Shown here: piece by piece, positions 697 through 36,378 of the stretch
Layout: the number at the start of each line of letters is the position of its first letter
Numbering within the stretch: the first letter of the stretch is position 1
DNA from: a virus
Strand: one strand, 5' to 3'
DNA length: 54,361 nucleotides
Virus record (IMG/VR): IMGVR_UViG_3300022074_000053
Span: 1-54,361 of that record
Notes under the pieces: generated by a model
The model's input: only the letters and a program-made list of their open reading frames with translations
Database searches by the model: none
What the model was told of the DNA's origin: nothing
Made by a program: the position numbers and the translations under genes

Positions 697-1087
697 TTGT
701 GAGTCTCCGTTTTATGAGATGGTCTATTGAGAAATTACCAGGACCACTGAGGACAATACATGCTGAACCTCCCCAGTAAAGAACTAAAAGTTCTAACAAG
801 TAGATATTGAATCCAGATGTAACTAGGGCATGATAAATTGCAAATGATATTGTACCTAAGATTGCTAAGGCACCCAGACGAGTGCCTAATCCACAGATAA
901 CCATCCAACTACCCACAACCTCAGCAAGTGCTGCGAAGTATGATGAGAAGATTGGGAATGGCAAGTGCAATGGTCTTACAAATGCATCCGCAAAGTTTTC
1001 AATGTTTTCTAGTTTCTCATATCCATGATGGATAAGCATCGTGCCTAACGCTATACGAAGTAATAAGAATCCTAGAGATTGAATCAT
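689..1087 (-). CDS. DoxX-like membrane protein
   Basis: A 132-residue integral membrane protein resembling the DoxX/DoxD family, with about four hydrophobic helices starting at [20 protein letters not shown]. The Gly-rich helix pattern, HHGYEKLEN near residue 20 and [16 protein letters not shown] in the middle fit the family. DoxX proteins are linked to quinone or thiol redox reactions in membranes, but the reaction here is inferred only. Its ATG overlaps the psbD stop (ATGA), so it is translationally coupled to D2, which suggests a role in thylakoid redox balance. An upstream in-frame start inside psbD is unlikely. Confidence 0.75.
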
Positions 1088-2142
1088 AATGCATTTCCTC
1101 TTGGTAATACCTCTTCTGGGAATACAAACTGTTCGTGTGGTTGATCCACTGGTGCCATCCAAGCACGAAGACCTTCATTCAAGAGAATGTTCTTGGTATA
1201 GAAGGTTTCAAATTCTGGATCTTCTGCTGCTCTGATTTCTTGCGAAACAAAGTCATAAGCGCGAAGGTTGAGAGCAAGACCAATAATACCGATGGAACTT
1301 GTCCACAGACCCATAACAGGAACAAAGAGCATAAAGAAATGCAGCCACCTCTTATTACTAAACGCAATACCGAAGATCTGAGACCAGAAGCGGTTTGCTG
1401 TAACCATTGAATAGGTTTCTTCTTCTTGCGTTGGTTCAAACGCTTTGAATGTGTTTGCCTGTTCTCCATCTTCAAAAAGTGTATTCTCTACTGTGGCACC
1501 GTGAATAGCACAGAGAAGTGCTCCACCCAGTATACCAGCAACTCCCATCATATGGAAGGGATTGAGCGTCCAATTATGAAAGCCCTGGAGGAAGAGAAGG
1601 AAGCGGAAAATCGCCGCGACACCGAAACTCGGCGCAAAGAACCAAGAGGATTGTCCGAGAGGATAGATGAGAAATACAGAGACGAATACAGCAATAGGAC
1701 CAGAAAAAGCAATCGCATTGTACGGTCTGATTCCTACTAAACGAGCAATCTCAAACTGTCGAAGCATAAAACCGATAAGAGCGAAGGCTCCGTGGAGCGC
1801 CACAAAATTCCAGAGTCCTCCAAGTTGGAACCACCGCTGAAGGTCCCCCTGAGACTCAGGACCCCAAAGTAGAAGAAGAGAATGACCCATAGCATCAGCA
1901 GGCGTTGACACAGCCGCTGTAAGGAAATTAGCACCCTCAAGATAACTACTTGCGAGTCCGTGGGTGTACCAGCTTGTAACAAACGTCGTGCCAGTAAGCC
2001 AGCCACCAATTGCGAAATAAGCAGTGGGAAAAAGAAGTAATCCAGACCAGCCCACAAAGATAAAGCGGTCGCGTTTAAGCCAGTCATCAAGGACATCGAA
2101 CCACCCCCTTGTTGGTTGTTGTGATAGTGTTGAAGTTGTCAT
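1084..2142 (-). CDS. psbD: photosystem II reaction centre protein D2
   Basis: A full-length 352-residue D2. The N-terminal [20 protein letters not shown], the five membrane helices, the quinone and iron region around [20 protein letters not shown] and the ending VLPRGNAL are all typical. D2 binds QA and half of the P680 chlorophylls in the thylakoid membrane. The phage copy replaces the host protein as it turns over. AGGAGG precedes the ATG. Both a sigma-70-like and a late promoter motif precede it, so it may be expressed through most of infection. Followed by DoxX with an ATGA overlap. Confidence 0.98.
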
Positions 2143-4813: not shown

Positions 4814-4842
4814 ATAATACACTTTATGAACTTAAAAGTCAA
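4814..4842 (-). promoter_or_regulatory. sigma-70-type promoter of gcvP
   Basis: TTGACT (4837-4842, overlapping the psbA stop codon), 17 bp spacer and TATTAT (4814-4819) on the minus strand. A start about 7 bases downstream would lie in the 5' arm of the terminator at 4788-4813, so the gcvP transcript could not form that hairpin fully. Confidence 0.7.
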
Positions 4843-5915
4843 CCAATGCTAGGTGCGGTGAGTGCCACAGGAGTGGACTCAGCAGCAGCAAGATCAAGGG
4901 GGAAGTTGTGTGCGTTACGCTCATGCATAACTTCCATACCAAGACCAGCACGATTGAGTACGTCCGCCCAGGTGTTGATCACTTTGCCTTGGGACTCAAC
5001 AATCGACTGATTGAAGTTGAATCCGTTAAGGTTGAATGCCATGGTGCTAACACCAAGAGCAGTGAACCAGATACCGACAACAGGCCACGCAGCGAGGAAG
5101 AAGTGCAGAGAACGTGAGTTGTTAAAGGATGCATACTGGAAGATCAAACGACCGAAGTAACCGTGTGCTGCGACGATGTTGTAGGTCTCTTCTTCTTGAC
5201 CGAACTTGTAACCATAGTTCTGGGACTCAGTTTCAGTGGTTTCACGAACCAGCGAAGAAGTAACCAGACTTCCATGCATAGCAGAGAAAAGAGATCCACC
5301 GAATACCCCAGCAACACCGAGCATGTGGAACGGGTGCATAAGGATATTGTGTTCTGCTTGGAATACAAGCATATAGTTAAAAGTGCCAGAAATACCAAGA
5401 GGCATAGCATCGGAGAAACTACCTTGACCGAAAGGATAAACGAGGAATACAGCAGAAGCAGCAGCGACAGGTGCGCTGTAGGCAACGCAGATCCAAGGAC
5501 GCATACCCAGGCGGTAGGAGAGTTCCCACTCACGACCCATGTAGGCGTAGATGCCGATGAGGAAGTGGAAAATTACAAGTTGGAAAGGTCCACCGTTATA
5601 CAACCACTCGTCGAGCGATGCGGCTTCCCAAATAGGATAGAAGTGAAGACCAATTGCGTTGGAAGAGGGAACAACTGCACCAGAGATGATGTTGTTACCG
5701 TACATGAGTGAACCAGCGACAGGTTCACGGATGCCATCGATGTCCACAGGAGGAGCAGCGACGAATGCTACGACGAAACAGATGGTTGCTGCCAACAGAG
5801 TTGGAATCATCAGAACGCCGAACCAACCGACATAGAGGCGGTTATTGGTGGAAGTTACCCACTCGCAGAAATTATCCCAAGTGGATGATTGTTGTCTTGA
5901 AAGAGTTGTAGCCAT
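4839..5915 (-). CDS. psbA: photosystem II reaction centre protein D1
   Basis: A 358-residue D1. The start [20 protein letters not shown], five membrane helices, [15 protein letters not shown] loop and the C terminus [16 protein letters not shown], including the C-terminal extension that CtpA would remove, are all characteristic. D1 binds QB and ligates the manganese cluster, is the fastest-turned-over photosystem protein, and the phage copy sustains electron flow during infection. I chose the ATG at 5915 because the upstream in-frame codons are not D1-like. No intron is present. It has a strong promoter and a 150-base structured leader, and a terminator follows. Confidence 0.98.
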
Positions 5916-5964
5916 TTTCGTAAAAGGGTTATGTATGAGTGCGGGGAACACCGGGTAGAATATT

Positions 5965-21954: not shown

Positions 21955-22034
21955 CCTCTATACCTCCCCGGCCATGTAAGTTGCATTCCTACCAGCAATA
22001 ATGTAATAAACACAAATATGAATAATAAAGTCAT
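21951..22034 (-). CDS. 27-residue membrane peptide
   Basis: A very short frame MTLLFIFVFITLLLVGMQLT followed by WPGRYRG. Its ATG overlaps the zwf stop and its stop overlaps the next ATG. One hydrophobic helix with a basic tail recalls the tiny subunits of photosynthetic complexes, but no family match can be claimed. GGGGAGG lies inside its end as ribosome binding site for the next gene. Confidence 0.5.
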   Translation of the reverse strand: MTLLFIFVFITLLLVGMQLTWPGRYRG

Positions 22035-23386
22035 GCTGGATAATCCCAATTTGTAATCTCATCTACTTTAGATGTAGGACCCCATGTTCCTGCTTCATAT
22101 ATGTGAGGAATTGTATTGATGAGACATTCTTCACCAGTACAAAGAAGATCATCTACAATTCTCCAGGATTCCATCACTTCATCAGAGTGGACAAAGTGTG
22201 ATTGATTTCCACTGATCGCATCATATAAAAGTTTCTCATACCCATCAATCGCTCTTTCCTGGGGATAGGCGTGTGTGAGGGTAGCGAGTTCCAAATTGTC
22301 AGAAAGACCAGGAGATTTGATATCCATACGGATGTCCAGATGAGGATTAGGTTGAAGACGCATAACGATGCGATCATTTGTTTCCCCTTCATAAAGTTTT
22401 AGCGGTGGTGATTTAAATTTAATAACAACTTCCACACATCCATAGGGCATACATTTGCCTGTCATTACGCGAAAAGGAACTCCTTCCCAACGCCAGTTAT
22501 CGACATATAAAGAACCAGCGACGAAGGTAGGAGTACTGCTGAGAGGATCAACGCCCTCTTCAGTGCGGTAAGTATTGTATTGTCCAAAGATTGTATCCTC
22601 CCCTAAACGAGTGGCAGCAAGAACTTTAACTTTTTCTCTGCGAATTTCTTTCGCATCCATTCTGCATGGCGCTTCCATAGCAATGAGAGAAAGCACCTGA
22701 AGAACATGATTTTGTAGCATGTCCCTAACAGCACCAGCAGTGTCATAGTATTGAGATCGTCCATCACAACTGATTGTTTCAGTTGCGAAGATTTGAACTT
22801 CTTCTATGTAATTACGGTTCCATAAAGGTTCCAACAAAATATTGCTAAACCTAGTAGCAAGTATGTTATTAACAGTATCTTTGCCAAGATAATGGTCAAT
22901 GCGATAAACCTGTTTTTCGCGTAAATGTCGCTCAACCACAGACTGTAAATGATGAGCAGATTGATAATCGTACCCAAAGGGTTTCTCAATAACCAAACGC
23001 GATTTTTCGGGGTCATCAAGTCTTCCTGCTTCTTTGAGATTGATGATAGCATTCTCATATCGTTCTGGAGGTACAGATAAAAAGTAAGTGTTATCATCCA
23101 GATACCCCGGCAAATGATTCAGAGTTTCTGGTAAAGATAAATCTGTGGAAACATAATCTAAATGCCATAGAAAATCTTCAGGATAATCATCAGGATTAGC
23201 AAGAGATTCTTTCCATTGATCTGGAGTTCTTTCACGTCTAGCAGATCCAGTAATAACAAAATTCTCTGGAAGTAAGTCTTTCTTCCAGAGATTATAAAGT
23301 GCAGGAATTAGTTTTTTCTTACACAGATCTCCAGTCGCACCAAAGATAACAATCCCAGAACTAGTGGGCCGTTCCATTTCCATCAT
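22031..23386 (-). CDS. zwf: glucose-6-phosphate dehydrogenase
   Basis: A 451-residue enzyme making 6-phosphogluconolactone and NADPH. IVIFGATGDLCKKKLIPALY binds NADP, RIDHYLGKDTVNNILATRFS holds the substrate-binding and catalytic residues, and EKPFGYD is present. Slightly shorter than the usual host enzyme of about 500. The longest frame begins with TTG at 23431; ATG 23386 is preferred, with 23383 or 23377 possible. It overlaps a small gene between zwf and gnd. With gnd it drives the oxidative pentose phosphate pathway during infection. Confidence 0.96.
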   Translation of the reverse strand: MMEMERPTSSGIVIFGATGDLCKKKLIPALYNLWKKDLLPENFVITGSARRERTPDQWKESLANPDDYPEDFLWHLDYVSTDLSLPETLNHLPGYLDDNTYFLSVPPERYENAIINLKEAGRLDDPEKSRLVIEKPFGYDYQSAHHLQSVVERHLREKQVYRIDHYLGKDTVNNILATRFSNILLEPLWNRNYIEEVQIFATETISCDGRSQYYDTAGAVRDMLQNHVLQVLSLIAMEAPCRMDAKEIRREKVKVLAATRLGEDTIFGQYNTYRTEEGVDPLSSTPTFVAGSLYVDNWRWEGVPFRVMTGKCMPYGCVEVVIKFKSPPLKLYEGETNDRIVMRLQPNPHLDIRMDIKSPGLSDNLELATLTHAYPQERAIDGYEKLLYDAISGNQSHFVHSDEVMESWRIVDDLLCTGEECLINTIPHIYEAGTWGPTSKVDEITNWDYPA

Positions 23387-23489
23387 ATTTGTCTGATTCG
23401 TAGTAGTTATTTTCACCTTTTCGTATCCCAAAATGTATCGTAAATATCACAAACGGGATCGCGATCCATTTAAGAACATCAGCGAACAT
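23361..23489 (-). CDS. small membrane protein nested between gnd and zwf
   Basis: A 42-residue frame starting MFADVLKWIAIPFVIFTIHF and ending YESDKYDGNGTAH. GGAGG lies 5 bases before the ATG, inside the gnd 3' end, and the frame overlaps gnd by 11 bases and the zwf start by 26. The hydrophobic helix plus acidic YESD tail resembles other cyanophage small membrane proteins. A start at 23492 is possible. Translation is likely but unproven. Confidence 0.6.
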   Translation of the reverse strand: MFADVLKWIAIPFVIFTIHFGIRKGENNYYESDKYDGNGTAH

Positions 23490-24516
23490 CATGACCTCCA
23501 AACATTGCTCTCATACCGTTCAGAACCTTGGCAGTGAAAGCACCCAAACGGCGCGACTCAAAGCGTGCCCACAACGCGCCGCTGATGACAGGAGCGGGTA
23601 CGCCAAGATCCACAGCAGCGTGAACAGTCCAACGACCCTCACCACTGTCTGATACTCCTCCATCGAACTTGCTAAGTTCTCTATCACCCCTAAAAACATC
23701 AGCGGTAAGATCGAGTAACCAAGAACCAACCACAGAACCACGACGCCATAACTCAGCCACCTCAGAACAGTCAATATCATATTGATAATCCCTCGGATTC
23801 TCCATCGGAGCAACCTCAGCATCGCCCTCTTTAACGTAAGCTGACCCAGCATTAGCTTCATGCAGGATATTAAATCCTTCTGCGTATGCTTGCATGATTC
23901 CATACTCAACTCCATTATGAACCATCTTTACAAAGTGACCTGCACCTGGTGGTCCACAATGTAACCAACCATACTCAGCAGATGTTGCGCTTGAGTAAGG
24001 GTCTGTGCGGGGTGCAGAGGCAATACCTGGTGCGAGTGCGCGAAAGATTGGAGAACAAACGGATACTGCAGTATCTGTACCACCAACCATAAGACAGTAT
24101 CCACGCTCCAGACCGTAAACACCACCACTAGTACCGCAGTCAAGATACGAGATGCCAAGTTTAGATAACCTTTCTGCCCTTCTGCGAGAGTCCTTAAAAT
24201 TACTATTGCCGTGATCAATAATAATATCTCCCTCACCACAAAACTGTAGTAACTCATTAAGTGTTTCCTCTACTAATTCTGCGGGTATAACAAGTTGAAA
24301 AATTCCTGGTGCTTTACCAACCAATCCTTCTTGATTGTGTACTACTTGAACAAGGCTTTCCAGAGAAGAGGCAATTCCACTGACATAACCTGCTTTATAC
24401 GCTTCTTGAGCTTTTTCATAGTTCCTCCTGTAACCCCAAACTTCAATGCCTTCTTTCATCATGCGACGAGACATACCCTCGCCCATGCGACCAAGACCAA
24501 TCAATCCTACTTTCAT
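23479..24516 (-). CDS. gnd: 6-phosphogluconate dehydrogenase (decarboxylating)
   Basis: A 345-residue enzyme making ribulose-5-phosphate, CO2 and NADPH. GLIGLGRMGEGMSRRMMKEG binds the cofactor, LDCGTSGGVYGLERGYCLMV and GPPGAGHFVKMVHNGVEYGI hold the substrate and catalytic Lys region. It belongs to the shorter (about 300-350 residue) form rather than the 470-residue one. It overlaps the PTOX gene by ATGA, so it is translationally coupled to it. Confidence 0.95.
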   Translation of the reverse strand: MKVGLIGLGRMGEGMSRRMMKEGIEVWGYRRNYEKAQEAYKAGYVSGIASSLESLVQVVHNQEGLVGKAPGIFQLVIPAELVEETLNELLQFCGEGDIIIDHGNSNFKDSRRRAERLSKLGISYLDCGTSGGVYGLERGYCLMVGGTDTAVSVCSPIFRALAPGIASAPRTDPYSSATSAEYGWLHCGPPGAGHFVKMVHNGVEYGIMQAYAEGFNILHEANAGSAYVKEGDAEVAPMENPRDYQYDIDCSEVAELWRRGSVVGSWLLDLTADVFRGDRELSKFDGGVSDSGEGRWTVHAAVDLGVPAPVISGALWARFESRRLGAFTAKVLNGMRAMFGGHDVR

Positions 24517-25118
24517 TTTTGTTCTACTGATGATACTAATGTTACTGAATCCAAATCACTTACATCTGGTGGAAATGGTTTGCGATCTTTTTCTCTTACA
24601 GTTAAACGATCAGGATCAATAATCCTCATCGCTTCGTATAATTCTTGTGCGTGATGCATTTCATCATTCATCACACTGCATATATCTATATCAGATCCAT
24701 CAACCTCTGACAGATACTTACCATACGTTTCCATAGCATGGATTTCTATTTCGTAGGAGAGATGGTAAGCAGCGCGAGGAGATAACCAATAATAAACCAC
24801 GTTGATCCAATAATAGATAAGTACGAGGTGTCTGGCAAGAAAGCGATCAATCCAATAAGCATTACCGCCCCTAGATTCCATGATTTCCAGATGTTCTGTT
24901 TCATTGACCGATTGCTCAAAGTGCTGTTTCATCAAATAAATATGCCACTGCCCACGCAAACCTAACGATTCACGCAAGTGAAGCACACTTAAAAAAGCAA
25001 AGTATGGTGCTCGTGCTATCTCCTCAAGAACCCAGAATCTCTGAAAGTGACGACCTTGATACAGGAAGTCTAAGATAGCAACTGTGATGTTTAATGTGAA
25101 CGTGTTAATAGATTTCAT
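24513..25118 (-). CDS. ptox: plastoquinol terminal oxidase (alternative oxidase family)
   Basis: A 201-residue membrane-bound diiron oxidase that oxidises plastoquinol and reduces oxygen to water. Ligand motifs in order: LEEIARAPY (about 31), NETEHLEIME (72-81), YEIEIHAMETY (122-132) and NDEMHHAQ (151-158), so all glutamate and histidine ligands appear present. Between them are FLARHLVLIYYW and the YHLSYE helix. It would act as an electron valve from photosystem II during infection. It is in an operon with gnd and zwf. Confidence 0.93.
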   Translation of the reverse strand: MKSINTFTLNITVAILDFLYQGRHFQRFWVLEEIARAPYFAFLSVLHLRESLGLRGQWHIYLMKQHFEQSVNETEHLEIMESRGGNAYWIDRFLARHLVLIYYWINVVYYWLSPRAAYHLSYEIEIHAMETYGKYLSEVDGSDIDICSVMNDEMHHAQELYEAMRIIDPDRLTVREKDRKPFPPDVSDLDSVTLVSSVEQK

Positions 25119-26850: not shown

Positions 26851-26879
26851 ACTATACAATATTTACTTAATTGTGTCAA
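26851..26879 (-). promoter_or_regulatory. strong sigma-70-type promoter
   Basis: TTGACA (26874-26879, within the last pstS codons), 17 bp spacer and TATAGT (26851-26856). The predicted start, about 26844, lies in the 5' arm of the terminator hairpin at 26826-26849. Confidence 0.7.
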
Positions 26880-27828
26880 CGGCAGCAAGAGATTTCTGCC
26901 GAAGATCCTCTGGAAGAGGTACATATCCCAAAGAATCTGAAACCACCTGCGACTTTTCGCTCAGCATATAACGAAGAGTTTCCTTAACTCCAGGTCTAGA
27001 GTCAGGATAAGCAAGAATCCAAGTCAGAGATACGATTGGATAAGCATTCGCACCCACAGGGTTAGGATCTTCCCCACGAAGTTTATCGTCTAGAACGATC
27101 TTGGCAAGTCCAGCAGCGGAGGTTTCACTGTTTGCTTTCACAAAGTTGCCTGCCTTGTTTTGTAGAGCAACCTGTTGAAACTTACCACCGTTCAAGTAAC
27201 CATAGTTCAGATAACCGATAGCACCTTGAGTGTTCTTGATAGTACCAGCAACACCAGCGTTACCTTTACCACCAACACCAACAGGCCACTTCACAGACTT
27301 ACCAGTGCCGACCTTTGCTTTCCACTCAGGAGAGAAGGCAGACAGGGAGTTGGTGAATCCTTTGGTGGTGCCAGAACCATCGGAACGCCACACGGTGACG
27401 ATCTGCTTATCAGCACAACCGAAGGTGCTCCAGTTTGTAATCTTACCAAGGAAGACATCAGCAAGTTGAGTCTGCGTCATCTTGGCATCACAACCAGGTA
27501 GATTGTAAGCAGGGACGATAGCGCCGCCAGTCATAGGAATATGAACCATGGGCAGTTTCTGCTTAGCATCACTCACAGCACCATCGCTGGCACCAAAGTC
27601 AACAGTCTTAGCAGTATACTGACGAACACCAGCACCACTACCAACTGCTTGATAGTTCACTTGATTTCCAGTCTCTTTATTAAAGGATGCGAACCAGGAA
27701 TTATACAAAGGAGCAGGGAAAGTCGCACCTGCTGCATTCAGTTTGAATGTATCTTTCTTTTCCTCAGCACCACAAGCAATAAGAACAGGTGCAGTCAATG
27801 TAGCAATAAAAAATTCTTTGAGTTTCAT
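26863..27828 (-). CDS. pstS: phosphate-binding protein PstS
   Basis: A 321-residue periplasmic phosphate-binding lipoprotein. Signal sequence MKLKEFFIATLTAPVLIACG with lipobox LIAC. NAAGATFPAPLYNSWFASF, GSGAGVRQY and WRSDGSGTTKGFTNSLS form the phosphate site. It delivers phosphate to the host PstCAB transporter, relieving phosphate limitation of phage DNA synthesis. ATG 27828 is chosen; the longer frame starts upstream of the signal peptide. The leader is AT-rich, but I see no clear Pho box. Confidence 0.95.
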   Translation of the reverse strand: MKLKEFFIATLTAPVLIACGAEEKKDTFKLNAAGATFPAPLYNSWFASFNKETGNQVNYQAVGSGAGVRQYTAKTVDFGASDGAVSDAKQKLPMVHIPMTGGAIVPAYNLPGCDAKMTQTQLADVFLGKITNWSTFGCADKQIVTVWRSDGSGTTKGFTNSLSAFSPEWKAKVGTGKSVKWPVGVGGKGNAGVAGTIKNTQGAIGYLNYGYLNGGKFQQVALQNKAGNFVKANSETSAAGLAKIVLDDKLRGEDPNPVGANAYPIVSLTWILAYPDSRPGVKETLRYMLSEKSQVVSDSLGYVPLPEDLRQKSLAAVDTIK

Positions 27829-27883
27829 CTTTTTTGTTAGATAAACCTTGGTATATATTAGCACTTAATTTAAATTTAACCAT

Positions 27884-30556: not shown

Positions 30557-31027
30557 ATGACTTTTGGAAAGACAATACTTTGGTCTGTCCTAAGTGTGGT
30601 GGGTGCAAGTGCCATACTTGCACCTGCCCAGGCGGTCCCGGTGGTTCCGAACTTCACCCAGGGCTCAATGACGAGCCACACAGAGACAACATCGAAGGTG
30701 ACTGAAACTATTAATTCTATTGATTATAATACAGGATGGCAATACTCAGTAACTGGCACAAACGTGAACAATGGTGGAGAAGCATTAAATCCATCGAATG
30801 TGACAAACTCGGTGATGGTGAATCCACTCGGAGGAATGGAGGGACAGGTTTCAACAACCAACACCTCAGCAAATCTAGGAACAGCGAACTTTGTAATAAC
30901 GAATCCGAACGAAGCGTTTCAGTTCACTCAAACGTATTCGGGTCCAGGAATGTCAAACCAAACAATTATTCAAAGAGTAACAGAAGTTACAAGCGTAACA
31001 GATACTACAAGTGTCTTTACCCAGTAA
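30557..31027 (+). CDS. exported Thr-rich protein
   Basis: A 156-residue protein with signal peptide MTFGKTILWSVLSVVGASAI and likely cleavage after PAQA. The mature part is rich in Thr, Asn, Val and Ser, with MTSHTETTSKVTETINSID and NTNTSANLG-like stretches resembling an adhesin or fibre protein. A strong GGAGG precedes the ATG. It overlaps the next gene at the stop. Confidence 0.8.
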   Translation: MTFGKTILWSVLSVVGASAILAPAQAVPVVPNFTQGSMTSHTETTSKVTETINSIDYNTGWQYSVTGTNVNNGGEALNPSNVTNSVMVNPLGGMEGQVSTTNTSANLGTANFVITNPNEAFQFTQTYSGPGMSNQTIIQRVTEVTSVTDTTSVFTQ

Positions 31028-32025
31028 TTGCGCTGCTAATAGCGTCACCAGTGAGAGCGAACGTTGGTGGTGTATCAGCAACAGCAAACCCCATCGCAAA
31101 TAGCTCTGGCTCAGTTACGAACCAAGCTATTCAGGTTTTACAAGGTCCGTATATAACTAACACATATGGCGGTGGAATTTCCTGTCAAGGTCCAACTCTT
31201 AATATAACTCCATTTGTTACTCATAGTAGAAGTTATCAAGACCCATATGAAGGTATTTACTATGAACCTCAATATGATGGTAGAGATGTAAAAGGTCAAA
31301 AAGTAGAAATACAACAACAAGTTAAAAACTATCCCTGGGAAGAGTGGTATGACGATAGGGTCAGAACCGATCCTAATGATCCTCTTTATGATGTTAATGA
31401 AGATGGCATACCAGATAGATGGTTTGAAGATGGTGCTGATATGACAATCGTCATTGAAGATATTCAACCAGACGGAATTCCAGATCGACCAGGAAAGGTG
31501 GTCTGGGATAAACCAGTAAGAACAGGACAGAAAGATAATTTAAGCACTAATATTGGTCTATCAGCAACTATGTCTTTTCCACTTGATGGTGGATTACAGG
31601 AACGTTGTAAAGCAGCAGCAGACACTCAAACTGCATTAATGAAACAAACGGTTGCTAACAAAAGATTAGACTTTGAAATTGCTCGTCTCAAGAATTGTGG
31701 AGAATTAATGAAGGCTGGAATTCGCTTTCATAGAAGAAGTCCCTATTATGCCATCTGTGCTGATGTAGTAGTACAAAATGTGAATACTATTCCACAACAT
31801 AGGCACCCTATCCCTTCTTCTTCGGTTCCTTTAAGACAGGCAAACCCCGCTTCTCCCGGTACTGATTCGCAAGCACCTCTTGGCGGGACAATCTCCGGGG
31901 TTTCTTTCCCAATAAGGACTGCGCCTTTGTCAGCGCCTTCTTCACAACCGGTTTCACCACTCTTAACAAAAGATCAGCAAGAGGTTTTGCGAGTATTGCC
32001 GAAGACGTTGCCACAACAGCAATAG
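31027..32025 (+). CDS. exported protein with no standard start codon
   Basis: About 333 residues. The mature part begins after a signal-like IALLIASPVRA, then SATANPIANSSGSVTNQAIQ, GPYITNTYGGGISCQGPTLN and an EF-hand-like DVNEDGIPDRW. No in-frame ATG, GTG, TTG or suitable CTG exists from 30739 to 31030; the first ATG (30736) lies far inside the upstream gene. ATT at 31027, overlapping the upstream TAA, is the nearest candidate, but a frameshift from the upstream gene is also possible. The C terminus overlaps a minus-strand gene for 218 bases. Confidence 0.75.
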   Translation: MALLIASPVRANVGGVSATANPIANSSGSVTNQAIQVLQGPYITNTYGGGISCQGPTLNITPFVTHSRSYQDPYEGIYYEPQYDGRDVKGQKVEIQQQVKNYPWEEWYDDRVRTDPNDPLYDVNEDGIPDRWFEDGADMTIVIEDIQPDGIPDRPGKVVWDKPVRTGQKDNLSTNIGLSATMSFPLDGGLQERCKAAADTQTALMKQTVANKRLDFEIARLKNCGELMKAGIRFHRRSPYYAICADVVVQNVNTIPQHRHPIPSSSVPLRQANPASPGTDSQAPLGGTISGVSFPIRTAPLSAPSSQPVSPLLTKDQQEVLRVLPKTLPQQQ

Positions 32026-32593
32026 AAGCAGTAGCAGTCACCGCACCTGCTGATGGAATATTTCCTACGATTTGTTCGGTTATCCCAATATCTTCTGTAA
32101 CTTGAATACACTCCTTACCAACTAATCTATACTCAATAACTTTCTGATCTCCTTTTATAAATCCAACAGGTTCTTTAAGTTCTTGTGCTTCTGTCGGACA
32201 ATCAATACCTTGATTTGGTGTTCTAGGAGCAGCAGGTGTTTTTGGTGTAGGTGGTTCAGGTGCTTCTGGTTGTTCTGGTGATCTTACTGAAGGAACTTCC
32301 TGAGATCTTTTTTCAGTTTCATACTGCAATCTTCTGGCATCATAATTGATTGCGTTAAAACTTGGCATCTCGCCATCACAAAATATCTTTACCTGATCCG
32401 GATCGTTATTAGGTAAATTAGCATTCTTATTACTATCTTCATGCGACTTCACACAGCCAGGCATATTCACAATAGGAAGACCCACCTGTGATGTTATAGG
32501 TGGATAAATTGGAACAGCCATTGATGGTTCAATTGCCCACCGTGGAACTGTAGGAATACTTAAATCACGAATATTAATTTCAGGAATATCCAT
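31808..32593 (-). CDS. Pro-rich structural-like protein
   Basis: A 261-residue protein with a Pro-rich middle (SPEQPEAPEPPTPKTPAAPR), an Ala/Val-rich hydrophobic segment (GAVTATASIAVVATSSAILA) and a basic C terminus (LLGKKPRRLSRQEVLANQYR). It overlaps the plus-strand exported gene by 218 bases. It is part of the late operon from 34576 and may be a virion or lysis protein. No family recognised. Confidence 0.75.
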   Translation of the reverse strand: MDIPEINIRDLSIPTVPRWAIEPSMAVPIYPPITSQVGLPIVNMPGCVKSHEDSNKNANLPNNDPDQVKIFCDGEMPSFNAINYDARRLQYETEKRSQEVPSVRSPEQPEAPEPPTPKTPAAPRTPNQGIDCPTEAQELKEPVGFIKGDQKVIEYRLVGKECIQVTEDIGITEQIVGNIPSAGAVTATASIAVVATSSAILAKPLADLLLRVVKPVVKKALTKAQSLLGKKPRRLSRQEVLANQYREKRGLPVLKEPKKKG

Positions 32594-32594
32594 C

Positions 32595-32864
32595 TCAAGG
32601 CAATCTTAATGCTCCTCCCGTATACTTAGGTCCAGTCTCTCCCATCGGTACTACACCACCTGTCGCGTCAGGAAGAGCAGGCATAGCAGCATCAATAAGT
32701 CCAGGAAGTGCTTCAGCAATTGCTTCAGTTGCCGCAGATGCTGCTTTCTCTCTTGCCCTTTCTATTAAGACATCCTTGCTAAGATATAACCAAGTACCAC
32801 CACCAACAACGGCAGCAGATACAGCAAAAGACGCAAGCGCAAGTACATTGATTATTTTCTGCAT
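32595..32864 (-). CDS. small membrane protein with Ala-rich tail
   Basis: An 89-residue protein MQKIINVLALASFAVSAAVV with one membrane helix or signal anchor, a helical Ala-rich EKAASAATEAIAEALPGLID and TGGVVPMGETGPKYTGGALR. The ATG overlaps the previous stop (TAATG). Function unknown. Confidence 0.75.
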   Translation of the reverse strand: MQKIINVLALASFAVSAAVVGGGTWLYLSKDVLIERAREKAASAATEAIAEALPGLIDAAMPALPDATGGVVPMGETGPKYTGGALRLP

Positions 32865-33322
32865 TATACTAACGTGCCATGAGCACGGCGAATTTCTCTA
32901 AGTTCTTCGAAGTTCTTTTGTTTAGTTCCACCATCATAAGACCAAGCATAACCTTCATCAATCATTTGTTCGTTCAATGAAGATTCAGCGTCACCAATAT
33001 ATAACCACCCTAATAAGCGACCATACTTGCCCATACCACCAACAAGCTCAGTGCGAATAATAAGGTCATCATTCCCATTAATGGCACCATCCAATTTCTC
33101 TTTGAGCCAATTCGTTGCCTCAATTCCCAACTCCTTTTCTTCAAGGTCCCTGGTTCTTTTTTCTGGAGTATCTACACCAGCAACTCTAACCCTTTCTTTT
33201 TTGAATAAATCAAATCCAAGATCAATAGTTACATCAATGGTATCACCATCAACGACTCTATTGATTTCAACTACTCGGAAGTTGTAACACGACTTCCTGC
33301 TGGGTGGTACCATTGCGCCCAT
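32864..33322 (-). CDS. thermonuclease-like nuclease (SNase fold)
   Basis: A 152-residue staphylococcal-nuclease-like protein. VVDGDTIDVTIDLG, RVRVAGVDTPEKRTRDL and YGRLLGWLYIGDAESSLNEQ with DEGYAWSYDGGTK match the family, including the Arg, Asp and Glu of the active site. It cleaves DNA or RNA using calcium. AAGGAG precedes ATG 33322. It overlaps its neighbour upstream by 56 bases. No signal peptide is seen. It may take part in host DNA breakdown. Confidence 0.88.
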   Translation of the reverse strand: MGAMVPPSRKSCYNFRVVEINRVVDGDTIDVTIDLGFDLFKKERVRVAGVDTPEKRTRDLEEKELGIEATNWLKEKLDGAINGNDDLIIRTELVGGMGKYGRLLGWLYIGDAESSLNEQMIDEGYAWSYDGGTKQKNFEELREIRRAHGTLV

Positions 33323-33533
33323 AATTCGTCTCCTTAGCTTCTAATGATGCTGCTATGCCAATAATAGTTATAAGTGCAGCAATTACTGCGCTAGCGCCCC
33401 AAACAGTTTTTTCAAGTTTACGAATACGCTGACGGAGTTCTTCAGTCGTTTCTTCCGCATCTTCAATGCGGTGTTTCAGAAGTGCTATCTCCTGATCCTG
33501 TTGGGCGTCCTTCAGTTCTATTTGATTGGGCAT
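33267..33533 (-). CDS. coiled-coil plus membrane-helix protein
   Basis: An 88-residue protein with a coiled coil (LLKHRIEDAEETTEELRQRI), then a membrane helix VWGASAVIAALITIIGIAAS and a short tail. The layout resembles XhlA-like or spanin-like helper proteins, which is only a guess. It overlaps neighbours on both sides, by 56 and 71 bases. Confidence 0.7.
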   Translation of the reverse strand: MPNQIELKDAQQDQEIALLKHRIEDAEETTEELRQRIRKLEKTVWGASAVIAALITIIGIAASLEAKETNYGRNGTTQQEVVLQLPSS

Positions 33534-33669
33534 CTTCTAACTCCTGGAATGCCATACTCATAATGGTATATATGTAATAACTTACTCCAATAAGGAGTAT
33601 AATTATTGAAATAATAACACTCCATACAGGATCATTAGTATTTTCTAAGGGACGAAGAAATAAATTCAT
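33463..33669 (-). CDS. small membrane protein
   Basis: A 68-residue protein MNLFLRPLENTNDPVWSVII with one membrane helix (SVIISIIILLIGVSYYIYTI) and a hydrophilic tail NRTEGRPTGSGDSTSE. Its ATG overlaps the previous stop (TAATG). Conserved among cyanophages as far as I recall, function unknown. Confidence 0.75.
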   Translation of the reverse strand: MNLFLRPLENTNDPVWSVIISIIILLIGVSYYIYTIMSMAFQELEDAQSNRTEGRPTGSGDSTSETPH

Positions 33670-34283
33670 TAGCAATCATTAAATACAGATCCTACTTCCG
33701 AACCAATAGTCTCTCCTGCTTTATTACCCAAAAGAGCAGCCCATCCTGCTGCTAACCATCCAATGTAAGGGATGTTGATGAGAGCAGGAGCGACAAGACC
33801 AGTAGTAATAGCACTACCTGCCATCGCACCTTGTGATCTTGCTCCAGCGTCCGCCACGATACACTCTATGCTTTCCACAGTCTTTCCCTCAGAATCCAGC
33901 GTTGTGGCACCCCCAATATTTCTTACACCTTCCATGGTATATTGATCATAGCGAGTTTCACTACGCTTCTCATGGGAACCACCAAACATTCCTTTCTTTT
34001 CCTTATCAAGATCTAATGTTCTATGGGAATCAAGGATTGTGGGATCATTTGCTTTATAATTAATTCTATATCCCTCTGGACCTGCTTCAATAGTATATGA
34101 AGCATAATCTCCTTTAGGAATATTGATCGTAGGAATTTGGGGAACTTGAGGTCTATCAGGTTCATCGTGAATCAAATGACCAAGAACACCAATATGTGCT
34201 ACAGCAAAAAGACTACCAACACTAAGAGCAACCCATTTAAAAGGATTGTTATTTTTTATCGGGTTCAATTTTGTTTCGGACAT
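33669..34283 (-). CDS. membrane-anchored exported protein
   Basis: A 204-residue protein with a helix near residues 17-37 (WVALSVGSLFAVAHIGVLGH), a beta-rich middle (YTIEAGPEGYRINYKANDPT) and a Gly/Ala-rich hydrophobic end (AGSAITTGLVAPALINIPYI). GGAGTAGG precedes the ATG. It could be a virion membrane-contact or lysis accessory protein; I recognise no named family. Confidence 0.75.
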   Translation of the reverse strand: MSETKLNPIKNNNPFKWVALSVGSLFAVAHIGVLGHLIHDEPDRPQVPQIPTINIPKGDYASYTIEAGPEGYRINYKANDPTILDSHRTLDLDKEKKGMFGGSHEKRSETRYDQYTMEGVRNIGGATTLDSEGKTVESIECIVADAGARSQGAMAGSAITTGLVAPALINIPYIGWLAAGWAALLGNKAGETIGSEVGSVFNDC

Positions 34284-34294
34284 AACCTACTCCA

Positions 34295-34576
34295 TTAAAC
34301 AACTTTTTCTTTTTTACACTCTTCTTTCTTTTCTTCTTTCCTATCCTTTTTGGTAGGAACAACCCCGAAAGTAGCTAAAGTCCCAGTGAACACGCTGGCT
34401 ATAAATGTGGGGTCGATATTCTTTTGAGGAACACCAGGAATAGTCACATAATTTAGTGTGAGAATTGCTGCAGACCACGATAGAATAACAACGCGCACCA
34501 ATGCCGACAGACCTTCGTCTGCCCAATCAAACTTATTCTGTTTGGTTTCCTCTTTCTTCTTTGGAGCAGACTCCAT
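34295..34576 (-). CDS. small membrane protein, possible holin-like
   Basis: A 93-residue protein with charged ends (ESAPKKKEETKQNKFDW and KKDRKEEKKEECKKEKVV) and two hydrophobic stretches (VVILSWSAAILTLNYVTI and FIASVFTGTLATFGVV). Two helices with charged termini fit a holin, but many small phage membrane proteins share this layout. A late promoter CTAAATA lies 22 bases upstream. Confidence 0.65.
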   Translation of the reverse strand: MESAPKKKEETKQNKFDWADEGLSALVRVVILSWSAAILTLNYVTIPGVPQKNIDPTFIASVFTGTLATFGVVPTKKDRKEEKKEECKKEKVV

Positions 34577-34597: not shown

Positions 34598-34604
34598 TAT
34601 TTAG
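34598..34604 (-). promoter_or_regulatory. late promoter
   Basis: CTAAATA, containing the TAA stop of the upstream gene (34601-34603), 22 bases before ATG 34576. It likely starts the late transcript down to 31808. Confidence 0.55.
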
Positions 34605-34795
34605 GGGTCAAGAATCTCTACAGAGATATTCGCGTTTTGTATTTGATTGTATTTTTTACAAAGGGAATCACTTGATTCGTGTTCCCATTTATGATATGCA
34701 CTTTTTAAGTTCTGAATGTAATCAGTTCCACCGAGACCGACCATTTCATCGGCAACGATTTTCTTGATTAACACATCTCTTGTTATATGTGTCAT
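34601..34795 (-). CDS. small soluble protein
   Basis: A 64-residue helical protein MTHITRDVLIKKIVADEMVG, ending ISVEILDP. A strong sigma-70 promoter (TTGAAA, 16 bp, TATAAT) lies upstream, suggesting early expression, unlike the surrounding late genes. No recognised family. Confidence 0.7.
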   Translation of the reverse strand: MTHITRDVLIKKIVADEMVGLGGTDYIQNLKSAYHKWEHESSDSLCKKYNQIQNANISVEILDP

Positions 34796-34903: not shown

Positions 34904-35584
34904 TTATTTAGCAATGAATCCATTTTCAACTAACCATTCACGGGTCATTGGCGTGGGTTCATAATCAGTCCACATCGTTCCAGCGGCACAAGATTCTAAT
35001 GCTGCCTGAGTCATACCTTCAGTGTGACCTGCCCAATATGCTTCCTTTTCCCAGGGAATTGCTTGTGGTTGAGATTGATAAGCACTCTTTGCGATTGCCT
35101 GATACATCTTAGGAACTTCTTCCTGGGGTTTGATGATAGCAATAAAGTTATTTTTAATACTACCCGCCATACAATCCTGAGCAGCGTGCCATCCTTCATG
35201 ACGCATTACTGACATCATAGTGCCAGGACGATGCATATGAGCAACATTCAGAAAGAAGTTATTACTTACAGTATGATAGACACCACGATGACCAATTGGG
35301 AAGTATCGCATATCTGCTAGAAAAACCTTAGCTCCGACCTTATTAAGTGATCGGACGAGAGAGTCAAACTCATCAGCAACAATACTATAATCAATATCAG
35401 ACAATTCATCATGTTTATTGAGATCAGAAACTGTTTTAAGTTCTTGAACATGATCGGTGCATTCCCTGAGTAACATGCATCCTTGAGCATGAGCACTGAA
35501 ATAGTGCTCCTCTTTGATTGGATCAGCAAGCGCAGGAGTCGTCAGAGAAACTGCGGCGAGCATAGCAAAGATAGTTTTAATCAT
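34904..35584 (-). CDS. exported HEGWH zinc metallopeptidase-like protein
   Basis: A 226-residue protein with signal peptide MIKTIFAMLAAVSLTTPALA and a zincin motif in MSVMRHEGWHAAQD (HExxH, about 129-133). EKEAYWAGHTEG downstream could give the third ligand. This suggests a periplasmic zinc peptidase, perhaps cleaving peptidoglycan crosslinks or envelope proteins during infection or lysis. I do not recognise a named family. It overlaps the gene upstream by ATGA. Confidence 0.75.
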   Translation of the reverse strand: MIKTIFAMLAAVSLTTPALADPIKEEHYFSAHAQGCMLLRECTDHVQELKTVSDLNKHDELSDIDYSIVADEFDSLVRSLNKVGAKVFLADMRYFPIGHRGVYHTVSNNFFLNVAHMHRPGTMMSVMRHEGWHAAQDCMAGSIKNNFIAIIKPQEEVPKMYQAIAKSAYQSQPQAIPWEKEAYWAGHTEGMTQAALESCAAGTMWTDYEPTPMTREWLVENGFIAK

Positions 35585-35697
35585 ATTTTAAAAAATTTGT
35601 TGTAAAGAGCAGATGCTTCAAGATGCTTGCCATGATTTGTAAGATATCTGATTCTATCAAGAATCTTACGTTTGAAAACCTTAGATGTTTCCTCCAT
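35581..35697 (-). CDS. 38-residue basic peptide
   Basis: A short frame MEETSKVFKRKILDRIRYLT to YNKFFKI, strongly basic and helical. Its stop overlaps the metallopeptidase ATG (ATGA) and its start overlaps the gene upstream by 17 bases. It may be translation-coupling only or a small regulator. Confidence 0.55.
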   Translation of the reverse strand: MEETSKVFKRKILDRIRYLTNHGKHLEASALYNKFFKI

Positions 35698-35875
35698 CTT
35701 CATCTCCTATGTATTCTAGTGACATCACATCAATATCTTTAACATCAGGATTCATCCATTCTCTAAACTCACAGTGAAGTGAATAAGCATCATCGATATC
35801 ATCTTCACAGAGAGTGTGAATTCTATCTATAACGTAATTATGTACTTGAATTAGATTCTCTTTTAAAGTTACCAT
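35681..35875 (-). CDS. small acidic protein
   Basis: A 64-residue protein MVTLKENLIQVHNYVIDRIH, then CEDDIDDAYSLHCEFREWMN and an acidic tail with DEDGG. It overlaps the nuclease gene by 38 bases. The function is unknown. Confidence 0.65.
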   Translation of the reverse strand: MVTLKENLIQVHNYVIDRIHTLCEDDIDDAYSLHCEFREWMNPDVKDIDVMSLEYIGDEDGGNI

Positions 35876-36287
35876 AGTCTTTACGCATATAGCGACCTAG
35901 AATGTTGCTATTATAGTATGCCGGAGAACCGTCGTCAAGTGACTCAGATAATACATTATTGAGAAACAATTGTTTTGTTTCTTCAAAGTTACAAGTTCCT
36001 TTTGTTGAGTGTAAACTTAATATTTCTCTACTGAAGAACTCTTTACCATACTTTTTTATATCCTCCTTTAATTCTGGACAAGAACCATAATACTTTTTCC
36101 AATCTGATTCTTGTTTTACTTTTCGTTTCTTCCCTGGTGGTTTTCTAAAAGACCAAAAATACTTTCGCCCAATGTATTGTCGTTGGTTGGATTTATTGGT
36201 AATGAGATAAACAAAACCAAAGTTATCCCCAACATCATCACTATCAAATACTCGTTTCAAGTATAACCAAGGATTTTCATAACTCAT
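35838..36287 (-). CDS. GIY-YIG-like nuclease (SegE-like)
   Basis: A 149-residue protein with FGFVYLITNKSNQRQYIGRK, the GIY-YIG core with a degenerate first motif, and WKKYYGSCPELKEDIKKYGK plus FEETKQLFLNNVL typical of Seg-like phage endonucleases. It could be a free-standing homing endonuclease or a domesticated nuclease. Own late promoter. No intron is seen nearby. Confidence 0.72.
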   Translation of the reverse strand: MSYENPWLYLKRVFDSDDVGDNFGFVYLITNKSNQRQYIGRKYFWSFRKPPGKKRKVKQESDWKKYYGSCPELKEDIKKYGKEFFSREILSLHSTKGTCNFEETKQLFLNNVLSESLDDGSPAYYNSNILGRYMRKDYGNFKRESNSST

Positions 36288-36309: not shown

Positions 36310-36316
36310 TATTTAT
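36310..36316 (-). promoter_or_regulatory. late promoter
   Basis: ATAAATA on the minus strand in the divergent gap, 22 bases before ATG 36287. The sequence GATAAATAAT is repeated on the plus strand at 36371. Confidence 0.5.
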
Positions 36317-36371
36317 CTCTAAATCCAACAAAGCAACTCTACTCACGAATTGAGTTCCTGTCAAGCCCTTG

Positions 36372-36378
36372 ATAAATA
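36372..36378 (+). promoter_or_regulatory. late promoter
   Basis: ATAAATA on the plus strand, 20 bases before ATG 36399. Serves the tandem paralogues. Confidence 0.55.

What the first reader, a model, noticed from the sequence alone, without database searches (positions are those of the whole stretch)
34904..35584. Signal-peptide zinc metallopeptidase
HEGWH with a clear Sec signal places a zincin-like protease outside the cytoplasm. Cyanophages are not known to me for such exported proteases. It could degrade envelope proteins, peptidoglycan crosslinks or superinfecting phage receptors at late times.
Basis: partly seen in the sequence, partly recalled or inferred. Interest (0 to 1): 0.5.

Follow-up and report, generated by a model that had tools for sequence, protein, structure and literature searches.

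The report
Exported cyanophage zinc peptidase
Viruses of marine cyanobacteria often carry a little-studied gene for a small secreted zinc protease, frequently close to their cell-wall-cutting enzyme, so it may help open the host's envelope; its actual target has not been tested.

Summary
ORF 34904-35584 (minus, 226 aa) has a Sec-type signal peptide and the only HExxH among 109 window frames of 90 aa or more. It belongs to phrog_591, 'unknown function', found in 366 cyanophage records. All 83 viral-contig sequences checked keep HExxHxxQDC...ExEA. An AlphaFold model (pLDDT 86) resembles gluzincins, best IrrE at Z 6.6, below certainty. Shorter exported relatives occur in T7-like, siphovirus and other T4-like cyanophages. 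The window protein reaches no Pfam or NCBIfam cut-off.

In 8 of 10 whole phage records a wall hydrolase lies within 5 kb of it, on either side. In the window a late-type promoter motif precedes its four-ORF operon. I therefore favour an exported gluzincin that helps weaken the envelope at lysis. Against this: T7-like phages carry the relative just upstream of RNA polymerase, suggesting early expression; photosynthesis genes are also neighbours; no hydrolase of either family lies in this 54-kb fragment. Substrate and compartment (periplasm or thylakoid lumen) are unknown.

The parts
34904..35584 (-). Exported zinc-peptidase gene, 226 aa, phrog_591
35525..35584 (-). Predicted Sec signal peptide, residues 1-20 (MIKTIFAMLAAVSLTTPALA), AxA cleavage
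   Evidence: sequence, by eye; crude rule
35186..35200 (-). HEGWH, residues 129-133: two zinc-ligand His and the catalytic Glu (inferred)
   Evidence: H, E, H invariant
35042..35050 (-). E179-K-E181: E179 is the likely third zinc ligand, on helix 173-186 (inferred)
   Evidence: invariant E.EA; helix
35171..35173 (-). Cys138, likely disulfide partner of Cys199 (both are lost together in ACG-2014f)
34988..34990 (-). Cys199
35459..35479 (-). Cys36 to Cys42, cysteine pair invariant in the long (phrog_591) form
36310..36317 (-). GATAAATA, late-type promoter motif (NATAAATA) 23 nt before the operon's first start codon
   Evidence: motif from PMC2984593
35838..36287 (-). GIY-YIG-like (homing endonuclease-like) ORF, first ORF of the overlapping operon
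   Evidence: 'GIY-YIG' by appearance
35681..35875 (-). 64-aa ORF, overlaps both neighbours
35581..35703 (-). 40-aa ORF whose stop overlaps the peptidase start (ATGA)
34601..34795 (-). 64-aa downstream neighbour, found near the peptidase in 28 of 94 loci
34295..34576 (-). DUF6450 small membrane-like protein, conserved downstream neighbour (holin-like by appearance only)
   Evidence: Pfam PF20048; 61 of 78 loci
33669..34283 (-). phrog_605 protein, conserved downstream neighbour
   Evidence: within 5 kb in 64 of 94 loci

Best explanation
The gene encodes a small zinc-dependent endopeptidase with a gluzincin-like active site (His129 and His133 plus Glu179 hold zinc, Glu130 activates water). It is made late in infection, exported by the host Sec system, signal-cleaved after Ala20 and held by disulfides (Cys138-Cys199, perhaps Cys36-Cys42). 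It works outside the cytoplasm, most likely in the periplasm, where it cuts one or a few host envelope proteins and so weakens the envelope alongside the phage's wall hydrolase, as an accessory lysis factor. Shown by sequence: the ORF, the motif, its conservation, the signal-like N-terminus, the overlapping ORFs and the gene neighbourhood. Inferred: zinc binding, proteolysis, timing, the compartment (periplasm rather than thylakoid lumen) and the envelope role.
For: HExxH, QDC and ExEA kept in 83 of 83 viral-contig sequences; H, E, H, Q, E, E, A invariant across 16 divergent rows. Confident model (pLDDT 86.3, pTM 0.82); the best second-look rows are zinc-peptidase-type domains, first IrrE 3dte Z 6.6, rmsd 3.0, 86 residues. 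Signal-like start in 73 of 78 against 3 of 45 other ORFs. Cysteine pairs kept or lost together. Late-type motif 23 nt before the operon; 6 of 14 such motifs in the window lie within 60 nt of a start codon against 0.44 expected at random placement. In 8 of 10 whole phage records a wall hydrolase (PF18013 or PF07486) is within 5 kb, upstream in five and downstream in three, where about 0.5 is expected at random. In 26 of 54 loci with 2.5 kb of upstream sequence a wall hydrolase precedes it on the same strand, never both kinds (14 of 29 after clustering). A published survey finds endolysin alone predominant in Kyanoviridae (PMC12596118, passages). A short relative, S-CREM2 gp108, is absent from that phage's virion table (PMC10665884, section 18).
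Against: Four T7-like cyanophages carry the short relative with zero or one gene between it and RNA polymerase, which suggests early expression. 28 of 54 loci have no wall hydrolase of these kinds within 2.5 kb upstream, the loci nearest the window among them, and the window has none of either family in 54 kb. Photosynthesis and carbon genes are neighbours too. No late motif lies within 250 nt upstream of the gene in 76 sequences, about 4 expected by chance, and the motif is not enriched over the whole window (14 found, 17.2 expected). Six reference cyanophages lack the gene, so lysis does not generally need it. Structure matches are below Z 8. No assay exists.
Confidence: 0.4

Rival explanations
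1. Lumenal photosynthesis protease: the Sec signal takes it to the thylakoid lumen, where it cuts or matures lumenal or photosystem proteins to keep electron flow going during infection, like the plastocyanin and D1/D2 genes near it.
For: In Syn9 it follows psbD by about 30 bp; psbA, petE, PTOX, gnd, zwf or talC lie within a few kb in several named phages. Within 5 kb of it, petE is found in 28, PTOX in 23 and hli in 23 of 94 loci (two of the 94 are copies of the window). Short relatives in S-CREM2 and S-CRES3 lie near a phycobiliprotein lyase gene. Sullivan et al. 2010 report petE, zwf and gnd as often found in phages isolated on Synechococcus (PMC3037559, abstract), the same bias as here.
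Against: The relatives in Syn5, P60, S-CBP42, S-TIP28, S-H34, S-N03 and ACG-2014f show no annotated photosynthesis gene in the stretches fetched, which are mostly hypothetical genes. No single photosynthesis gene is as frequent a neighbour as the wall hydrolases (49 of 94 loci), though I did not count their union.
Confidence: 0.22
2. Early host-takeover or exclusion protease: exported early, it cuts a host surface or periplasmic protein to block superinfection or to disarm an envelope defence.
For: Just upstream of RNA polymerase in four T7-like phages of three genera; among runs of tiny ORFs in S-H34, S-N03 and ACG-2014f. Accessory, and commoner in records named Synechococcus than Prochlorococcus. 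A TATAAT-like stretch follows the late motif in the window.
Against: Late-type promoter motif in the window and wall-hydrolase proximity of the long form. I made no search for defence genes nearby.
Confidence: 0.2
3. Non-proteolytic zinc protein: fold and motif kept, but the role is binding or chaperoning rather than cutting.
For: No activity has been shown; structural matches are below Z 8; the sequence matches to peptidase families that were shown with scores lie below cut-off.
Against: The catalytic Glu130 is kept in every sequence examined, which binding alone would not require.
Confidence: 0.1

Closest known systems
phrog_591 (PHROGs v4, unknown function)
   Same: Full-length match 5-225, E 7.5e-103
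   Different: No function is given there; export, active site and the wider superfamily are added here
phrog_16003 (PHROGs v4, unknown function)
   Same: E 2.7e-10 for the window protein over 99-187, 8.6e-19 for S-CRES3
   Different: Fits the shorter forms, which have an extra cysteine pair and no C-terminal tail
Peptidase family M76 (Atp23, PF09768)
   Same: The match spans the HExxH region; 6 of 12 short relatives match weakly, best E 5e-4
   Different: The three scores shown (13.5, 18.8, 19.3 bits) are below the 25.2-bit cut-off; the window protein has no match
IrrE/PprI zinc domain (3dte, 8sln)
   Same: Best structural rows: Z 6.6 and 6.4 over 86 residues; 3dte Z 7.2 for the short form
   Different: Cytoplasmic DNA-damage regulator with extra domains (recalled); no Pfam match of this kind was listed
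Minigluzincins: selecase, jannalysin, abylysin (4qhf, 4jix, 4jiu)
   Same: Small zinc-peptidase fold, Z about 4 to 4.5; the phrog_591 profile also rings in M. jannaschii
   Different: Not exported as far as I recall; which M. jannaschii protein rings was not shown
SprT-like/Spartan, the name given in S-SCSM2R
   Same: HExxH zincin (recalled)
   Different: No SprT-like family among the Pfam matches listed for 44 members; Spartan is a nuclear DNA-repair protease (recalled)
Endopeptidase ORF123 of cyanophage PaV-LD
   Same: A cyanophage peptidase tied to lysis, studied with its holin ORF124 (PMC9096620, listing and start of abstract)
   Different: Not compared with the window protein; the paper was not opened

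Membership tests
Gluzincin-type zinc peptidases | HExxH on an active-site helix | tested here: met
   Residues 129-133 inside helix 120-139, H, E, H invariant
Gluzincin-type zinc peptidases | Third zinc ligand is a Glu on a later helix | tested here: inconclusive
   E179 and E181 invariant, on helix 173-186; zinc geometry could not be measured
Gluzincin-type zinc peptidases | Gluzincin fold | tested here: inconclusive
   Zinc-peptidase-type domains head the list, but all Z are under 8 and 27 of the 50 rows are one protein, lethal factor; Foldseek has no PDB match at E 0.001 or better
Gluzincin-type zinc peptidases | Zinc-dependent peptidase activity | not testable with these tools
   Needs an assay
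Peptidase M76 (Atp23) | Pfam PF09768 gathering score | tested here: not met
   Window protein no match; of six weakly matching short relatives the three scores shown are below 25.2 bits
IrrE/ImmA (M78) | Sequence match to the family in Pfam | tested here: not met
   None among the families listed for 44 long-form members or 12 short relatives
IrrE/ImmA (M78) | Shared fold of the zinc domain | tested here: inconclusive
   Z 6.6, rmsd 3.0, 86 residues
SprT-like/Spartan | Pfam SprT-like match | tested here: not met
   None among the families listed for 44 members
phrog_591 | Full-length profile match | tested here: met
   E 7.5e-103, residues 5-225, profile 6-225 of 226
Phage spanin | Lipobox or transmembrane anchor with a periplasmic bridge | tested here: not met
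   By eye: the signal ends in AxA without a lipobox Cys, and no second membrane segment is seen

The most novel reading that the evidence does not exclude
Marine cyanophages of several morphotypes share a fast-evolving superfamily of exported small gluzincins, possibly taken from cyanobacteria, that cut a protein tether of the cyanobacterial outer membrane or wall and so stand in for the spanins these phages appear to lack.
Probability: 0.15. Interest if true: 0.75.

Novelty: new variant of a known kind. Interest (0 to 1): 0.5.

Why it matters
How cyanophages open the cyanobacterial envelope is poorly known; a recent survey found endolysin alone predominant in Kyanoviridae (PMC12596118, passages). 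A common exported protease, mostly listed as hypothetical and often near the wall hydrolase, gives a concrete candidate. It also occurs in T7-like cyanophages, for which genetic engineering has been reported (PMC8776855, listing). If it proves lumenal or early instead, it would be a new kind of host-directed auxiliary gene.

Tried and rejected
Chance motif: rejected on conservation. Virion protein: S-CREM2 gp108, a short relative annotated metallopeptidase, is not in the published virion table. The S-SCSM1 section names three non-structural virion proteins, not this one, but leaves 13 of unknown function unnamed, so it does not decide. SprT/Spartan label: no profile support. Host origin: the genome-contig scan gave 39 pattern matches and 2 relatives. 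L090 has the phage neighbourhood; the L089 protein resembles that of viral contig L070 by eye; both look like cyanophage contigs binned in MAGs. But the phrog_591 and phrog_16003 profiles ring in the control genome Synechococcus elongatus. The tool gave no handle for it, so I could not see that protein; it may be a host or a prophage gene. Plasmids: only two chance-level rows. Solved-structure sequence searches: none. The anthrax lethal factor rows reflect a general gluzincin resemblance at low Z; none was fetched. M. jannaschii also rings for phrog_591, protein unknown. M76 profile: no ring in window or controls. phrog_3541: nothing rang. A late motif directly upstream of the gene elsewhere: 0 of 76, about 4 expected, so the late reading rests on the window's operon. 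Viral-contig scans with single short forms: 1 relative for S-CRES3, 1 for ACG-2014f, none for the two S-N03 forms and S-H34. Literature: ten searches listed no paper on an exported zinc peptidase of cyanophages; the listings were capped, and beyond them I saw only the outlines, passages and sections named here.

Limits. The 80 viral-contig loci are the best of at least 600 candidates, so neighbourhood counts lean to near relatives; the 94 loci include two copies of the window. The Prochlorococcus contrast compares two separate searches by the first word of organism names and ignores phage kinship and duplicate records. The wall-hydrolase proximity test assumes random placement; these genes sit in a region rich in accessory genes, so the true background is higher. 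The ten records were fetched for their peptidase, but an 'endolysin' label in Bellamy had been seen, and the two hydrolase families were chosen from L090, Bellamy and S-SCSM2R; without Bellamy and S-SCSM2R it is 6 of 8. In P-RSM1 the PF07486 match lies in an 882-aa ORF, 7.3 kb away; in P-TIM40 the distance is 35 kb; a second PF18013 match in a roughly 1000-aa ORF of each S-TIM record was left out. The promoter test uses a hand-made gene list and ignores the AT-rich make-up of gaps. The signal-peptide rule was made by me after seeing the sequences.

Full report
What is there. The ORF at 34904-35584 (minus strand, 226 aa) is real and as described. It starts with a Sec-type signal (MIKTIFAMLAAVSLTTPALA|DP) and holds HEGWH at residues 129-133. 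It is the only HExxH among 109 frames of 90 aa or more in the window; a shuffled copy would show one in 3.5% of trials, so conservation and not the motif alone carries the argument.

Family. The protein is a full-length member of phrog_591, of unknown function (E 7.5e-103). tblastn finds it in 366 phage records, all with names beginning Synechococcus, Cyanophage or Prochlorococcus, each covering at least 80% of the query. In the rows listed most are annotated hypothetical; S-SCSM2R has SprT-like/Spartan and S-SCSM1 proteolytic enzyme. A helicase from the same window finds 460 records with those three names (375, 61 and 24, of 476 in all), against 301, 61 and 4 for the peptidase. The records were not intersected, so about 80% is an estimate. 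The low share among records named Prochlorococcus differs from Synechococcus (Fisher p 2e-10, ignoring kinship). A whole-record profile search finds no member in P-SSM2, P-SSM4, P-HM2, P-RSM4, P-SSP7 and S-PM2 (0 of 6); the other 14 of the 20 records searched had been picked because they have one. P-TIM40, P-RSM1 and PSS2, which have it, come from Prochlorococcus hosts. It is an accessory gene.

Active site. In 44 aligned members C36, C42, R128, H129, E130, H133, Q136, D137, C138, E179, E181, A182 and C199 are among the invariant residues. All 83 viral-contig sequences checked keep HE..H..QDC...E.EA.

A wider superfamily. Distant relatives are found by sequence or model in Syn5, P60, S-CBP42 and S-TIP28 (T7-like), PSS2 (siphovirus), S-CRES3, and T4-like S-N03, S-H34, S-CREM2 and ACG-2014f. 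They are 149-201 aa long. Across 12 short and 4 long forms H, E, H, Q, E, E and A stay invariant. Eleven of the 12 short forms have a signal-like start; PSS2 may have a misplaced start. Cysteines come and go in pairs: the 12 short forms have a pair that the long form lacks, and ACG-2014f has lost both partners of C138/C199. This fits disulfides formed outside the cytoplasm.

Fold. The AlphaFold model (44 sequences) has pLDDT 86.3 and pTM 0.82, with the order helix, strands, HExxH helix, Glu helix. Foldseek finds no PDB match at E 0.001 or better, and its weak rows mix zinc peptidases with unrelated proteins. The second look is headed by IrrE 3dte (Z 6.6, rmsd 3.0, 86 residues) and PprI, followed by lethal factor (27 of the 50 rows), ArdC, PPEP and selecase. 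The short form, less confident (pLDDT 67.6), gives a similar list with IrrE at Z 7.2. Z below 8 may mean only a common arrangement, but the prominence of HExxH enzymes together with the invariant motif makes a gluzincin-like site likely. By sequence, six of 12 short forms match peptidase M76 (Atp23) weakly, the scores shown all below the cut-off; I do not file it there.

Neighbourhood. In the window the gene is last of four overlapping ORFs (GIY-YIG-like, 64 aa, 40 aa, peptidase). A GATAAATA motif lies 23 nt before the first start codon, matching the cyanophage late promoter NATAAATA (PMC2984593, passage). Six of 14 such motifs in the window lie within 60 nt of a start against 0.44 at random placement, although over the whole window the motif is not enriched. 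A TATAAT-like stretch just behind it would also allow earlier expression. Downstream follows a conserved block: a 64-aa ORF, DUF6450, phrog_605, small membrane-like proteins and a nuclease; DUF6450 is within 1.5 kb downstream in 61 of 78 loci. In S-SM2 the peptidase is T4-GC 945 and sits beside GC 218 and 219, two of a five-gene cluster described in 2010 (PMC3037559, passage).

Link to lysis. In 26 of 54 loci with at least 2.5 kb upstream, a wall hydrolase (tail-lysozyme type, PF18013, in 9; Hydrolase_2 type, PF07486, in 17; never both) precedes the peptidase on the same strand; after clustering at 85% identity it is 14 of 29. In ten whole records fetched for their peptidase, a hydrolase is within 5 kb in 8, upstream in five and downstream in three, where about 0.5 is expected at random. 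Two of the ten helped to choose the families; without them it is 6 of 8. Proximity thus survives rearrangement, but the region is rich in accessory genes. The window has no hit to either family; it is a 54-kb fragment. A survey of lytic proteins reports endolysin alone as predominant in Kyanoviridae (PMC12596118, passages), which leaves room for an unrecognised helper.

Against. In four T7-like phages of three genera the short relative has zero or one gene between it and RNA polymerase, normally an early position. S-H34, S-N03 and ACG-2014f carry it among tiny ORFs. Photosynthesis and carbon genes (psbD in Syn9, petE, PTOX, gnd, zwf, talC) are frequent neighbours, and the relatives in S-CREM2 and S-CRES3 lie near a phycobiliprotein lyase gene. 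In cyanobacteria a Sec signal can also lead to the thylakoid lumen (general knowledge). The long and short forms may differ in role.

Origin. A scan of the genome collection (84,980 species) for HExxH[AFL][AIL]QDC found 39 stretches and only two relatives, apparently cyanophage contigs in MAGs; a relative without that exact pattern would be missed. The phrog_591 and phrog_16003 profiles ring in Synechococcus elongatus, so a host or prophage homologue probably exists that I could not read.

Verdict. The exported gluzincin-like peptidase is likely (about 0.85). Its favoured role, late envelope weakening near the wall hydrolase, is a working hypothesis (about 0.4). Ten literature searches listed no report of it. 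I score interest 0.5, as a new variant of a known kind: a common exported protease family of cyanophages, with a testable but untested function.

Noticed in passing
L043:5020-5676 (also L044, L046): A second, about 30% identical copy of the peptidase with the same motif and signal lies just upstream of the main copy in some viral contigs.
   Followed up: partly
window 32595-32864, and homologues labelled 'plasmid stability' (Bellamy gp239, S-SM2 SSM2_230): The 'plasmid stability' label sits on a small membrane-like protein; the window's copy has no Pfam match, so the label looks unsupported.
   Followed up: partly
window 35838-36287: The best phrog match is called 'NAD synthetase', but the ORF also matches homing endonucleases and looks GIY-YIG-like.
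   Followed up: partly
window 33267-33533: Small coiled-coil plus membrane protein with a faint XhlA-like match (E 0.23), near DUF6450; a possible holin-type partner.
   Followed up: no
window 36372-36378 and 36310-36316: Two outward-facing late-type motifs in one gap, each 21-23 nt from a divergent start codon.
   Followed up: yes
window 30736-32025 and 31808-32593: A plus-strand ORF (phrog_848) and a minus-strand ORF (phrog_570) overlap tail to tail.
   Followed up: no
window 1084-2142, 4839-5951, 22031-25118, 26863-27864: The fragment also carries psbD, psbA, zwf, gnd, PTOX and pstS.
   Followed up: partly
L089 and L090: Apparent cyanophage contigs binned into a Proteobacteria MAG and a Formosa MAG.
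   Followed up: partly
S-N03, S-H34 and S-CREM2 records: These T4-like phages each carry two divergent members of the peptidase superfamily at separate places.
   Followed up: partly
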